Below, in pieces: positions 22,767 through 26,756 of a stretch of 39,544 nucleotides of DNA; position 1 is the first letter of the stretch; each line of letters begins with the position of its first letter. Source of the DNA: an uncultured Eubacteriales bacterium (GTDB taxonomy: Bacteria > Bacillota > Clostridia > Oscillospirales > Oscillospiraceae); the NCBI GenBank assembly GCA_900317375.1, contig ONGJ01000037.1, forward strand, positions 1 through 39,544, read 5' to 3'. Made by a program: the position numbers and the translations under genes. A model generated the notes under the pieces. It did not search any database, had not been told where the DNA came from, and saw only the letters and a list, made by a program, of their open reading frames with translations.

Positions 22767-23347
22767 ATGAAGACAAGACGTATTGTAATGAGTGCGCTGG
22801 GCGTGGTGATCTGCGGGATCAGCGTAGGCATGTTCAAGCACGCCTCGCTGGGCGTGGATCCTTTTCAGTCCCTGATGAGCGGACTGGATGCGGTCATACC
22901 GATACGATTCGGCACGCTTTATGTCATTGTGAATCTTCTCCTTCTGACGTTTGCCCTGGTCTTTGACCGCCGAAAAATCGGCTTGGCGACGTTGATCAAC
23001 CTTTTTTCGGAAGATTCGTTCTTTTGCTGACCGCCATTGTGATCATGTGTCTTGCTTCTGCATTTTACTTTACCGCCGATCTCGGTGTTTCAACCTATGA
23101 CGCCGTCTCTTTGATATGGTCTGAAAAACAAAAGCGTATTCCGTTTCAATACTGCCGGATCATCTGTGACCTGGTCTGTGTATGTCTGGGCGCTGTGCTC
23201 TGCAGGATCGGAGGCGTCAATGTTTTCGGAGAGGTGAACATCGGGACGATCATAACCGCTTTCTTTATGGGGCCGCTGATCGCGCTCTTTAACCGGAAAG
23301 TCGCAGAACCCTTCCTGTACGGTCTGAAAAGGGAACAGGATCTCTGA
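22767..23347 (+). pseudogene. YczE/YitT-like membrane protein, frameshifted
   Basis: Two overlapping frames make up one family protein of about 190 residues. The first reads MKTRRIVMSALGVVICGISV, then GMFKHASLGVDPFQSLMSG, a typical start of YczE/YitT-like multi-pass proteins. It runs off family after LATLINLF and stops at 23030. The second frame continues with GRFVLLLTAIVIMCLASAF and TADLGVSTYDAVSLI to 23347. The break falls at a run of six T at 23002-23007; one extra T would join both frames cleanly as INLFFFGR-like sequence. The cause may be real inactivation, slippage-based switching or a base-calling error. Function of the family is poorly known. It follows lysR and precedes the Fic-like/STAS/kinase gene by 43 bases. 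Confidence 0.8.
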
Positions 23348-23390: not shown

Positions 23391-25250
23391 ATGACGCTGT
23401 ATGATTACCGCAGGCAGTTCAGAGATAATTTGATGATCATGTCGCGCACAGCCAACAGCAGGCTGGATCTGTCTGCAAGCGGCACCAAAAGCGATTCGAT
23501 GGCTGTAGACAGCGCCGCGGATGCCCAAAAGCTCGCTTTCGAGAACACGGAGCGGGCGCTCAGGTTCCTTTTCGACAACCGCAGGCGGACTTTCAGGTCG
23601 GCAGAGGAACTCGAGGAGCTGGTGCTTGAAACCGCGAAGATCACAAACGAAGGGATTACCAGGGAGGGCTGCCTTTTCAGAAGCGGCGAGGACAGCACCA
23701 AGTACAATTATGCAAGGATAAAGGATATCCCCGTCATGTGGGACCGGTACGTCAGAAGCTTTTCCTGGATGCTGAACTCACAATGCTTCGAGGTAGAGGA
23801 GATCGCCGCGTTCTGCGAGTATGTCATTAATATTCTCGGGCATTTCTTTGCAGACGGCTGCGGAAAGATCTCCATGCTCATCAGCACATACGTGTTCATG
23901 CGCTTTGATCTGCCATGTCCCCAATACACTTCCAGAGAGGAGTATTACCGCTTCGCTGTGCGCAGGAAGATCCCGTCGGTGAATGACCTGCGTCAGCTTC
24001 CGGCTGACCCTGAATTCTGGGACTTTGTTTCCTACTATCGGCGTCTCTGCCCGAGCAGCGGCCCGGACCTTTGCTGTGTCATGGAAAATGCGGAGGGCAA
24101 TTCGTATATCTGTCACCTGACCGCGCACCAGACAGGAGCGGGGAGCGGTGTGTTCCGCCAGAATATTGAGCTCTTTTATGAAACGCACGGAGATGTCCTG
24201 GTGCTGTTCGACTGCAGCGCACTGTCCTGGATTGACAGGGAGAGCATCCGCGTTCTGGCAGACCTGAAAGCATCCGGAAGGCGGTTTGTGCTGAAAAACC
24301 TCAATGCCGACTGCACGGTACTGTTCATAGTCGAAGGATTTGAAGCATGCCTGGAGGGGGAGGGCAAGCTCCCGAAGATTGATCTGAGCAGCTGCAAAAA
24401 AATCAGCGAGGGGGCAAACGGTGCCATTTACAGAGTATCCGACGAGGTGGCTGCGAAGACGTTCAAAAATGAACCGGATTATTACGATCTTGTCAGGCAG
24501 CGGATCTCCATGAGGAATGCGCTTGTCTGCGGTGTCCCCGCGCCGCTCTCTCTGGGTTATGCTGTCTGCGGCGGCAAGATCGTCATACTCATGGAACTCA
24601 TCCGCTTTCATTCTCTCATGAAGGTTTTCGCCTCGGAGGAGGACTGCGACGAGTATGTCATCCGCTATGCGCAGTTTATCAAACAGCTCCACGAAATCCG
24701 GGACGAAAAGAGGCTCAGCGCATTTATGCGGGACCTGCCCGGTCAGGAACTGCTCTCCAAAGCTGACCGCTGTGACCGCGTCCTGCCGGAGGCGTACCGG
24801 GGCAGAGCGCGGGCGATCCTTGAGGCGGCAGACGGGCCCGAATGCCTTGTGCACGGCGATATTCAGCCGAATAATATATTGATCAGCGAAGACGAGATGC
24901 TGTTCATCGACTTTGATTCGTTCTCGACAGGCAGGGCTGTCTATGATCTGGGTTCGCTCTACCGAACGCTTCTGTGCAACGAAAACAGGGGCGTCTCGGA
25001 TGTCAATTCTTTCCTTTCCCTGTCCTTCGGCAAGTGCCAAAGAATATGGGACCTGTTTACCGATGAGTACTACAGAGGCGAGCAGGAAGCGGTCAGGCAG
25101 AAAAGCATCGCACAGGCCGAGCTGATCGGGACTGTGCTTGCCCTTGCGAAGCTAATCAAAAGCGGAGACGATCCCTCGCTTATTTCCCGATGGGCCGGGG
25201 AGCTGGAGCGGCTGACAGATCAGGCGGGTGCGGATGATAACATGAAATGA
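23391..25250 (+). CDS. Three-domain protein: Fic-like, STAS-like and APH-kinase-like
   Basis: This 619-residue protein joins three regions. Residues about 40-200 resemble a Fic AMPylase fold: GCLFRSGEDSTKYNYARIKD leads to HFFADGCGK (151-159), aligning with HPFxDGNGR. The catalytic His, Asp and glycines are kept, while Asn is Cys157 and Arg is Lys159. Residues about 222-320 resemble a STAS domain: VLVLFDCSALSWIDRESIRV, with Glu284 where SpoIIAA has its phosphorylated Ser. Residues about 335-515 are an aminoglycoside-phosphotransferase-like kinase: EGANGAIYRV, Lys356, HGDIQPNN (488-495) and IDFD (506-509). No signal peptide or membrane segment is seen. GGAGGG lies 7 bases before the start. Function is unknown; signalling by protein modification is an inference. 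Confidence 0.72.
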   Translation: MTLYDYRRQFRDNLMIMSRTANSRLDLSASGTKSDSMAVDSAADAQKLAFENTERALRFLFDNRRRTFRSAEELEELVLETAKITNEGITREGCLFRSGEDSTKYNYARIKDIPVMWDRYVRSFSWMLNSQCFEVEEIAAFCEYVINILGHFFADGCGKISMLISTYVFMRFDLPCPQYTSREEYYRFAVRRKIPSVNDLRQLPADPEFWDFVSYYRRLCPSSGPDLCCVMENAEGNSYICHLTAHQTGAGSGVFRQNIELFYETHGDVLVLFDCSALSWIDRESIRVLADLKASGRRFVLKNLNADCTVLFIVEGFEACLEGEGKLPKIDLSSCKKISEGANGAIYRVSDEVAAKTFKNEPDYYDLVRQRISMRNALVCGVPAPLSLGYAVCGGKIVILMELIRFHSLMKVFASEEDCDEYVIRYAQFIKQLHEIRDEKRLSAFMRDLPGQELLSKADRCDRVLPEAYRGRARAILEAADGPECLVHGDIQPNNILISEDEMLFIDFDSFSTGRAVYDLGSLYRTLLCNENRGVSDVNSFLSLSFGKCQRIWDLFTDEYYRGEQEAVRQKSIAQAELIGTVLALAKLIKSGDDPSLISRWAGELERLTDQAGADDNMK

Positions 25251-25319: not shown

Positions 25320-26756
25320 ATGACAAAACAATCTCTCAAACTGCAGTCCCTGCACTTTTTTGCGGCCCTGCTTCTCGGCCTTCTGATTCTGTTTTTCCTG
25401 AAGCCCGGAGAGCACCTGACCGCAGTCGGCGTACGGGTCATTGCGGTGATGATCCCGATGCTTTATCTTTGGTTGACCGCAAACACGCACTGGACCTGCC
25501 TGCTGGCGCTGGCCCTGCTGGTTACCACGGGGGCGATGAGCGCAAATGAAGTCTGGGCAGGCTCACTGGGCAGCTTTGTGGTCATGACCGTCCTCGCATA
25601 TATGATCCTGAACGTCTGCCTGAAGGAAACAGGCGTCATCGACCGGATCGCGATCTGGTTCATTACACGCCCCTTTGTCCGTGGCCGGCCATATCTGTTT
25701 ATGGCGATGTTCTTTGCGTCCAATCTGCTGATCGGCATGTTTATGGAAAACCTGACGCTGGCGATCATCTATATCGGCATCACGGAGGGAATTGCCCGGC
25801 ATCTGAAGCTGGAAAAGGGAGACCCGATGTATACCGTACTGTTTACCGGCGTCATGTGGGGGAACGTCCTGGTCGCCTGCTGTTCGCCGGTGGCGCATGT
25901 TTTGCCGAACGTCCTGATGGCTCTGCTGGAAACACAGGCCGGAATCCGCGTGTCCTATGCCTCGTGGTTTGCTTACGGTACCATTTTCAGCGCCATAATG
26001 TTCGGCATCATGATGCTGATCATCCGTATCTGGAAGCCCGACACCTCTGCCTTTCAAAACTACGATCCCGACGAGATCCGCGCTTCAGCCGCGCCTCTCG
26101 GCAAGGCCGGCGTGATTGCGGCAGCCGTGTTCCTTGCCGTCATTCTGTTTGCCCTGCTCCCCTCCTCCCTCAGCTTTCTGCCTGTGTTTTCCGTCATCAA
26201 CAGCTGGGGTGCTGCCGTACCGGCTCTTTTTGCCATCTGTCTGCTGGCTCTGATCCATATCGACGGGCGGGCGGTTCTGGATGTCCCGGCCGCCATGAAG
26301 CAGATTCCTCTGCCCTCTGTCATTTTTGCCGGCACGGTTTCGGTTTTTGCGGTACCGCTTTCGTCCGAAGGCACGGGTATTACGCCCTGGCTCGGCGAGA
26401 TTCTGGTACCCGTGCTGGGCGGACATTCGGTCTGGTTTGTGCTGGTCATCCTGATTGCGCTGGCCATCCTGATGACCAATTTTCTTTCCAATATGGTCAC
26501 GCAGATCCTTTTCTTCAACATCGGTTTTATTCTTTTGAGGGACAGCTTCAGCATGGGGGCATTCTGCATTCTGATCGGGGTCGCGTCCGGCATTGCCGTC
26601 GCCACCCCCTCCGCCAACATCCCCTCCCCGCTGTTTTTCGGCCCGGGGCATATCACCATGCGCGGCACATGGAAAGCGAATCTTGCCTTCGTTCTGGCCG
26701 GGTTTCTCCTGTCTGTCGTCCCCGGTATCGCACTGGCCGCGGCTTTGACCGCCTGA
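25320..26756 (+). CDS. SLC13/DASS-type anion permease
   Basis: This 478-residue, very hydrophobic protein has about 11-12 membrane segments and resembles the ion-transporter superfamily with DASS/SLC13 and related carboxylate or anion permeases. Family-like features are the two helical-hairpin regions, the first around SNLLIGMFMENLTLAIIYIG and the second around NFLSNMVTQILFFNIGF, where Asn and Thr residues would bind substrate and sodium, and the late segment VATPSANIPSPLFFGP. Di- or tricarboxylates are the likeliest substrates but cannot be read. GGGGAGG lies 11 bases before the ATG, slightly far. It follows the three-domain gene by 69 bases in the same direction and ends at a very strong hairpin. 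Confidence 0.82.
   Translation: MTKQSLKLQSLHFFAALLLGLLILFFLKPGEHLTAVGVRVIAVMIPMLYLWLTANTHWTCLLALALLVTTGAMSANEVWAGSLGSFVVMTVLAYMILNVCLKETGVIDRIAIWFITRPFVRGRPYLFMAMFFASNLLIGMFMENLTLAIIYIGITEGIARHLKLEKGDPMYTVLFTGVMWGNVLVACCSPVAHVLPNVLMALLETQAGIRVSYASWFAYGTIFSAIMFGIMMLIIRIWKPDTSAFQNYDPDEIRASAAPLGKAGVIAAAVFLAVILFALLPSSLSFLPVFSVINSWGAAVPALFAICLLALIHIDGRAVLDVPAAMKQIPLPSVIFAGTVSVFAVPLSSEGTGITPWLGEILVPVLGGHSVWFVLVILIALAILMTNFLSNMVTQILFFNIGFILLRDSFSMGAFCILIGVASGIAVATPSANIPSPLFFGPGHITMRGTWKANLAFVLAGFLLSVVPGIALAAALTA

What the first reader, a model, noticed from the sequence alone, without database searches (positions are those of the whole stretch)
23391..25250. Fic-like + STAS-like + APH-kinase-like domains in one protein
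The sequence shows three signalling-type modules in order: a HxFxDGxGK motif in a Fic-like helical context, a STAS-like segment and a complete APH-type kinase catalytic set (Lys356, HGDIQPNN, IDFD). Fic proteins transfer AMP or phosphate groups, STAS domains bind partners in partner-switching, and APH-like kinases phosphorylate small molecules or proteins. I know of STAS plus APH-like pairings, but not of this triple. It lies among a LysR gene, a broken membrane-protein gene and an anion permease, so it could be a stand-alone signalling or defence-like switch.
Basis: partly seen in the sequence, partly recalled or inferred. Interest (0 to 1): 0.85.

Follow-up and report, generated by a model that had tools for sequence, protein, structure and literature searches.

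The report
Divergent Fic domain fused to kinase
A clostridial protein joins an unusual relative of the Fic protein-modifying enzymes to a degenerate STAS domain and a kinase, and the few relatives of its Fic part found elsewhere mostly sit beside kinase-like genes too, which points to an unstudied enzyme family that works together with kinases.

Summary
The 619-aa ORF (23391-25250, +) has a Fic-fold N-terminus, a STAS segment and an APH-type kinase. Residues 1-225 fold confidently (pLDDT 85.3); the six structures matched at E<=0.001 are all Fic proteins. A family profile finds a FICD homologue at 5.7e-6. The kinase catalytic set is invariant in nine aligned proteins. STAS is clear in relatives but degenerate here.

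The main point lies beyond the finding. The N-terminus belongs to a small Fic subfamily with HxFADGCGK in place of HxFx(D/E)GNGRxxR. I found nine members: three Fic-STAS-APH fusions in two same-genus genomes, five in Saccharibacteria, one in Gemmatimonadetes. In eight, a kinase or zeta-like P-loop protein is fused or within two genes: APH (Clostridia), TCAD9 kinase (Gemmatimonadetes), zeta-like with an HD_4 gene (Saccharibacteria); in the ninth the contig ends first. HD_4-APH fusions exist in the window's genus.

Best reading: a Fic-fold transferase, probably not a canonical AMPylator, working with a kinase in a chromosomal signalling module. The chemistry is untested. Apart from weak PADLOC matches, nothing links it to phage defence, plasmids or viruses. 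Novelty: new variant of a known kind.

The parts
23391..25250 (+). Fic-STAS-APH protein, 619 aa
   Evidence: ORF; full-length paralogue in own genome; third copy in G475
23391..24050 (+). Fic-fold domain of the HxFADGCGK subfamily, residues 1-220
   Evidence: AlphaFold, Foldseek, profile match to FICD, 9-member alignment
23442..23450 (+). Invariant Ser18-Arg19-Thr20 of the family-specific N-terminal segment
   Evidence: 9 of 9 rows
23841..23867 (+). Fic motif HFFADGCGK, residues 151-159
   Evidence: 9 of 9 rows have HxFADGCGK; aligned to HPFxDGNGR of FICD
24054..24365 (+). Degenerate STAS segment, residues 222-325
   Evidence: Pfam STAS above cut-off in L002, L041, L006, below it here; alignment
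24231..24248 (+). IDRESI (281-286) where most relatives have ISSAGL: the conserved Ser position is Arg283
   Evidence: 27 of 29 rows have Ser there
24369..25247 (+). APH-type kinase domain, residues 327-619
   Evidence: Pfam APH 1.3e-16 (374-532), TIGR02172 7.2e-21 (330-560)
24852..24875 (+). Catalytic loop HGDIQPNN (488-495)
   Evidence: H, G, D and last N invariant
24906..24917 (+). Metal-binding IDFD (506-509)
   Evidence: I and first D invariant
25320..26756 (+). CitMHS-type permease directly downstream (gap 69 bases); in the other two fusions a MATE-type transporter follows instead (Pfam for L070, by eye for L069)

Best explanation
It is a chromosomal signalling enzyme with two catalytic ends. 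The N-terminal Fic-fold domain keeps the catalytic His, the metal-binding Asp and the glycine phosphate nest, so it most likely transfers a phosphate-containing group to a hydroxyl. Loss of the motif's Asn and both Arg residues makes standard ATP-driven AMPylation unlikely and suggests another donor, for example a diphosphate such as a CDP-, UDP- or ADP-linked one, or another orientation, as in AnkX or Doc. The C-terminal APH-fold kinase, with an intact catalytic set, phosphorylates a small molecule or a protein hydroxyl. The degenerate STAS segment is a docking or linking module. The two activities work on one pathway: in other lineages the same Fic subfamily sits beside a different kinase-like protein, and in Saccharibacteria also beside an HD_4 hydrolase that could remove the mark. 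Shown: domains, conservation, purifying selection in two copies, contexts. Inferred: catalysis, donor, target, coupling.
For: Fic fold and sequence link to FICD. H151, F153, A154, D155, G156, C157, G158 and K159 invariant in 9 of 9 members from three phyla. dN/dS (my Nei-Gojobori script, L002 against L041) about 0.19 for Fic, 0.26 for STAS, 0.18 for APH. Kinase motifs intact. Contexts: Clostridia fusion in 3 of 3 copies; Gemmatimonadetes TCAD9 1e-19, 3 bases downstream; Saccharibacteria Fic, HD and zeta-like genes in this order in L037, L038 and L039, and a zeta-like/Fic fusion in L068 (Zeta_toxin 9.7e-7). HD_4-APH fusions L009 and L030 in the window's genus. Roles of Asn, R1 and R2 and AnkX's HxFxDANGRxxV motif: passages of PMC3667792 and PMC5033356.
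Against: No biochemical evidence exists. Loss of Asn and both Arg could mean loss of catalysis. The family is tiny (nine members), and five were found by a scan whose patterns included the motif, so their motif conservation is partly selected. There is no single conserved partner: in Saccharibacteria the neighbour is a P-loop protein, and in L037 it is below the Zeta_toxin cut-off, so calling it a kinase is itself an inference. The HD gene of L068 is below the HD_4 cut-off. No locus holds Fic, APH and HD together. The kinase tree does not settle whether the fusion arose once (p-AU 0.459 for one clade).
Confidence: 0.45

Rival explanations
1. The Fic part is a pseudoenzyme: a nucleotide-sensing or docking module that regulates the attached or neighbouring kinase without transferring anything.
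For: Three of the defining motif positions are changed (Asn to Cys, R1 to Lys, R2 to Met, Lys or Thr). The type of kinase-like partner varies while one recurs.
Against: The catalytic His and metal Asp are invariant in 9 of 9 members, which are 25-38% identical to the window copy; a dead enzyme would be expected to lose them in some lineages. Five of the nine were partly selected on the motif.
Confidence: 0.25
2. It is an ordinary AMP-transferring Fic whose Cys and Lys stand in for Asn and Arg, acting on the kinase or its partner.
For: Fic fold nearest to BT_2513 and FICD; FICD also leads the profile search. Lys might replace Arg for the beta-phosphate (inference); the anion nest is made of backbone amides (PMC3667792 passages).
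Against: R2, which binds the gamma-phosphate (PMC3667792 passages), is Met in all three clostridial copies. No [ST]xxxE[GN] inhibitory motif (motif recalled, not from a call) in 9 of 9 domain rows; a separate inhibitor protein was not sought.
Confidence: 0.15
3. It is part of a toxin-antitoxin or defence system: Fic and zeta-like parts are toxins held in check by partners.
For: Fic and zeta families include toxin-antitoxin toxins (abstracts in the listings); TCAD9 is, as I recall, named after ternary conflict systems. The Fic part of L068 matches PADLOC SoFic at 4.5e-5 and the Gemmatimonadetes kinase PD-T4-6 at 1e-4. Patchy distribution: 2 of 102 genus genomes, 4 of 294 class genomes, 1 of 249 Gemmatimonadota genomes for the GCGK type.
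Against: No match in plasmids; none in viral contigs, where the scan depends on short peptide patterns; one weak kinase-only phage match. PADLOC hits of the window protein are weak and in the kinase part only, best 0.0028; stand-alone P0002 has none. The neighbours scanned in the window are a LysR regulator, membrane-protein pieces and a permease.
Confidence: 0.12

Closest known systems
Fic/Doc superfamily (FICD/HYPE, BT_2513 3cuc)
   Same: Fold; His, Phe, Asp, Gly and Gly of the motif; C-terminal R-x-x-Y-Y-like stretch
   Different: GCGK replaces GNGR; second Arg absent; no inhibitory motif in the domain rows; family-specific N-terminal segment with invariant S18-R19-T20 and K33
AnkX and Doc, Fic proteins with non-AMP chemistry
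   Same: Deviating motif without the last Arg (PMC3667792 passages for AnkX; PMC4454073 section 6 for Doc)
   Different: Both keep the central Asn and an Arg; here Cys and Lys. None of the five motif groups in PMC4454073 section 6 is GCGK
STAS-APH and STAS-APH-HATPase proteins of the window's genus (near TIGR02172)
   Same: STAS plus APH arrangement
   Different: No Fic domain; the STAS Ser is kept in all non-fused rows except L006
TCAD9 (ternary complex associated domain 9, Pfam PF19974)
   Same: Kinase neighbour of the Gemmatimonadetes copy scores 1e-19; the window kinase gives a weak match, 1.5e-6, 28.1 bits against a cut-off of 40
   Different: The window protein is below the cut-off; PMC7159879, on ternary conflict systems with some APH kinases, has 0 occurrences of 'fic' and of 'tcad9' in its main text

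Membership tests
Fic superfamily (fold level) | Fic helical core | tested here: met
   (6 of 6 hits with E<=0.001; 107 hits with E<=10, of which the first 50 were listed; rmsd 7.3-9.1 A for the six)
Fic superfamily (fold level) | Profile similarity to solved Fic proteins across the motif | tested here: met
   best E 5.7e-6; 13 of the 15 listed sequences are Fic-annotated, the other two are an enolase (0.0011, other residues) and a spike chain (5.2)
Fic family PF02661 | Pfam gathering score | tested here: not met
   no match for the window domain, L002 or P0003; 16.1 and 16.9 bits against 24 for P0002 and L041; 17.7 for L068
Canonical AMP-transferring Fic | HxFx(D/E)GNGRxxR | tested here: not met
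   HFFADGCGKISM
Canonical AMP-transferring Fic | Inhibitory motif [ST]xxxE[GN] (recalled) in the chain | tested here: not met
   0 of 9 domain rows; regions outside the rows and separate inhibitor proteins were not searched
Canonical AMP-transferring Fic | Beta-hairpin flap that docks the target | tested here: inconclusive
   DSSP shows only single bridge residues at 87, 90 and 96; coordinates not available
STAS domain | Pfam gathering score | tested here: not met
   0.19 here; above the PF01740 cut-off in L002, L041, L006
STAS domain | Fold | tested here: inconclusive
   Strand-strand-helix-strand-helix-strand order is predicted, but pLDDT is under 60 in every ten-residue block from 221 to 330
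Partner-switching STAS | Phospho-acceptor Ser (position recalled from SpoIIAA/RsbV) | tested here: not met
   Arg283; Ser in 27 of 29 rows, Cys in L006
APH-type kinase PF01636 | Gathering score and catalytic residues | tested here: met
   61.6 bits against 23.2; residues invariant
TIGR02172 | Curated cut-off | tested here: not met
   75 bits against 228.2
Known anti-phage systems (PADLOC) | Strong match to a defence protein model | tested here: not met
   Window protein best 0.0028; among 5 related proteins, L068 SoFic 4.5e-5 (21 bits) and the L040 kinase PD-T4-6 1e-4 (19.3 bits), both weak
Fic-fold transferase | Catalytic activity | not testable with these tools
   needs biochemistry

The most novel reading that the evidence does not exclude
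The GCGK Fic subfamily is a new catalytic class of the Fic fold with its own donor, and it forms a writer-kinase module, with an HD_4 eraser in Saccharibacteria, that was assembled separately with APH, TCAD9/APH-like and zeta-like kinases in three phyla.
Probability: 0.3. Interest if true: 0.8.

Novelty: new variant of a known kind. Interest (0 to 1): 0.58.

Why it matters
Fic proteins have repeatedly turned out to make different protein modifications (AMPylation, phosphocholination, phosphorylation; PMC5033356 passages). A small, conserved subfamily with a rewritten active site, tied to kinase-like proteins of different folds and to an HD hydrolase, gives a defined place to look for another one, and the stand-alone versions of about 245 residues should be easy to test.

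Tried and rejected
Pfam, NCBIfam, PHROGs and PADLOC on the whole protein did not detect the Fic part; phmmer against the PDB did not either. Only the family profile and the fold model did.

Phage, plasmid or virus origin: not supported. The viral fold search had no hit with E<=0.001; its weaker hits include known viral Fic proteins (nudivirus 0.065, Fusobacterium phage 0.24) and an unnamed one at 0.043, as expected from a shared fold. The one phage match (MT835655, kinase region only, E=1e-3) was not followed.

One against two fusion events: undecided. The kinase of the window copy groups with non-fused L006 (93/88), but one clade for the three fused kinases is not rejected (p-AU 0.459). Long branches make this unsafe.

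Domain arrangement from a full-length model: not usable (mean pLDDT 59.0).

Literature: Fic domain with STAS domain, 0 papers; Fic domain with anti-sigma factor antagonist, 0; Fic domain, zeta toxin, HD domain and aminoglycoside phosphotransferase together, 0; TIGR02172, 0. Searches were seen as listings with starts of abstracts. Four papers were opened: PMC4454073 (section 6 whole, plus passages), PMC3667792, PMC5033356 and PMC7159879 (passages only). One paper search of ten was left unused.

Full report
The ORF. Window 23391-25250 (+) encodes 619 residues with an ATG start. It is unbroken and has a full-length paralogue (29% identity, residues 1-571) elsewhere in the same genome, C73:740-2431, and a third copy in another genome of the genus, G475. 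In a first search with the whole protein, 28 of 99 related genomes had a match at E<=1e-20; of the 32 places listed only the two of the own genome reached the Fic part, the others starting at residue 224 or later (G475 was not in that sample). L002 and L041, the paralogue and the G475 copy, are 72% identical. Their estimated dN and dS by domain (my own Nei-Gojobori script) are Fic 0.191 and 1.02, STAS 0.23 and 0.89, APH 0.136 and 0.74, so none of the three parts is drifting freely in that pair. The window copy itself was not tested this way.

The Fic part. No family library detects it in the whole window protein, and the window domain alone has no Pfam match. Of the four relatives, two give sub-threshold Fic matches (16.1 and 16.9 bits against 24) and two none; the L068 fusion gives 17.7. 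A profile of eight family members finds a FICD homologue in the PDB at 5.7e-6 and FICD itself at 7.5e-6, with the motif aligned. An AlphaFold model of residues 1-225 on six sequences has pLDDT 85.3 and pTM 0.88. Its six Foldseek hits at E<=0.001 are all Fic proteins, led by 3cuc (BT_2513) and FICD; TM-scores by model length are 0.51-0.67, with large rmsd (7.3-9.1 A). I conclude that the fold is Fic, in a divergent form.

The motif. All nine members read H-x-F-A-D-G-C-G-K. Caveat: five came from a genome scan whose patterns were [GC]H[FL]FADGC or an N-terminal peptide, so the motif was partly selected in those. L002 (protein search), L041 and L048 (profile searches) did not depend on that pattern. 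As a control, the 20 other Fic-like ORFs brought in by the same profile and scored all carry GNGR (two of them, L056 and L057, have the same length and score and may be near-copies). The one other Fic match of the own genome (E<=0.01) reads HPLKNGNGRLSA. In canonical Fic proteins the Asn contacts the alpha-phosphate, the first Arg the beta-phosphate and the second Arg the gamma-phosphate, while four backbone amides of the nest hold the phosphates (PMC3667792 passages; PMC5033356 passages). Here these residues are Cys, Lys and, in Clostridia, Met (Lys in Saccharibacteria, Thr in Gemmatimonadetes). The second Arg is also missing in AnkX (HxFxDANGRxxV, a phosphocholine transferase) and in Doc-type motifs (PMC4454073 section 6). 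None of the five motif groups of that survey is GCGK. The His and the Asp are kept in all nine.

The family-specific segment. Residues 13-33 carry invariant N13, L14, S18, R19, T20 and K33, in a Ser/Thr-rich stretch whose model confidence dips to 60 for residues 21-30. It does not hold the inhibitory motif [ST]xxxE[GN] (motif recalled): 0 of 9 domain rows have it. Whether the segment fills in for the lost arginines, covers the pocket or is a kinase target cannot be told without coordinates.

STAS and kinase. STAS is above the Pfam cut-off in L002, L041 and L006 but not in the window copy. In an alignment of 29 STAS-APH proteins (L003, L009 and L030 were left out beforehand) the conserved Ser of the ISSAGL stretch is Ser in 27, Arg in the window copy and Cys in L006. 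That this Ser is the phosphorylated one is recalled from SpoIIAA/RsbV. The window copy has a Ser two residues on (Ser285). The APH domain scores 61.6 bits (cut-off 23.2), with K356, E402, H488-G489-D490, N495 and D507 invariant in 9 of 9.

Distribution of the Fic subfamily. Genus: 2 of 102 genomes. Order: 1 of 394, the own genome. Phylum: 1 of 348, the own genome. Family of G495 (Saccharibacteria): 2 of 199 for the GCGK type, a third match being a GNGR Fic. Class of G496: 4 of 294. Gemmatimonadota (phylum of G499): 1 of 249 for the GCGK type; the other 17 genomes with a match carry GNGR. Family of G499: 1 of 21. These samples overlap, and most are drawn from larger groups. One genome-contig scan gave 53 pattern stretches, 5 of them relatives: 4 Saccharibacteria and 1 Gemmatimonadetes. 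Viral contigs: 0, all limited by short peptide patterns. Plasmids: 0. Phages: one kinase-only match for the window protein and none for the stand-alone Fic.

Contexts. Clostridia: Fic-STAS-APH in one chain, followed by a CitMHS permease in the window and by a MATE transporter in L070 (Pfam) and, by eye, in L069. Gemmatimonadetes L040: a gene that I read by eye as ThiL/PurM-like (not scanned) overlaps the Fic start by 4 bases, and a TCAD9 protein (1e-19) with HGD...N and LIDFA motifs starts 3 bases after the Fic stop. Saccharibacteria: in L037, L038 and L039 the order is Fic, HD, zeta-like P-loop protein, with gaps of -20 to +10 bases by mechanical start codons; in L036 the contig ends inside the HD gene, so the third gene cannot be seen. 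In L068 the zeta-like and Fic parts are one ORF and the HD gene follows. Pfam was run on L037 and L068 only: HD_4 8.5e-9 and 0.0024 (the latter below cut-off), Zeta_toxin 0.0014 (below cut-off) and 9.7e-7. The L036, L038 and L039 genes were placed by BLAST likeness (HD; zeta-like of L038 and L039), and all four zeta-like proteins have a GxxxxGKT loop. In the window's genus, HD_4-APH fusions exist (L009, L030: HD_4 1.1e-19 and 1.4e-23, APH 4.9e-17 and 5.9e-14), as do STAS-APH (L011) and STAS-APH-HATPase (L007). The two HD groups are only distantly alike (best E 1.75e-7). Fic with APH, HD with APH, and Fic with HD are thus each seen fused or adjacent. This triangle is the best evidence of a shared pathway, but no single locus holds all three, and no test against random neighbours was made.

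How it most likely works. A Fic-fold transferase with a rewritten donor pocket and an APH-type kinase act on the same pathway or on each other; HD_4, where present, may reverse one of the marks (that HD_4 is the RelA/SpoT type of hydrolase is recalled). Confidence 0.45 for this mechanism and about 0.9 for the anatomy, the STAS of this copy being its weakest part. The pseudo-Fic regulator is the main rival (0.25).

Novelty. Fic, STAS and APH are each known. Searches for Fic together with STAS, with anti-sigma factor antagonist, or with zeta toxin, HD and aminoglycoside phosphotransferase returned no paper in a library of open-licence papers only; no search for the GCGK motif itself was made beyond reading the motif survey in PMC4454073. 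I rate it a new variant of a known kind.

Noticed in passing
window 22767-23347 (+): A YitT-like membrane protein gene is split over two reading frames (Pfam YitT 0.0076, below cut-off, on the first piece only); probably a decayed gene.
   Followed up: partly
L009 1408-2889 (-), L030 913-2388 (+): HD_4 domain fused to an APH kinase in two genomes of the window's genus.
   Followed up: partly
L007 1378-2964 (+): STAS-APH-HATPase_c_2 in one protein; several loci have similar length and C-terminal sequence, but this is the only one shown to have it by Pfam. It resembles a whole partner switch in one chain, with a kinase in the middle.
   Followed up: partly
L037 8654-10551 (+): HD_4 hydrolase and zeta-toxin-like P-loop gene following the stand-alone Fic in Saccharibacteria, with no epsilon-type antitoxin recognised by eye among the listed neighbouring genes; no search for one was made.
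   Followed up: partly
L070 704-3929 (+) and L069 4558-7816 (-): The MATE-type transporter ORF overlaps the end of the Fic-STAS-APH gene by 26 bases (mechanical starts) in both relatives, against a CitMHS permease after the window copy.
   Followed up: no
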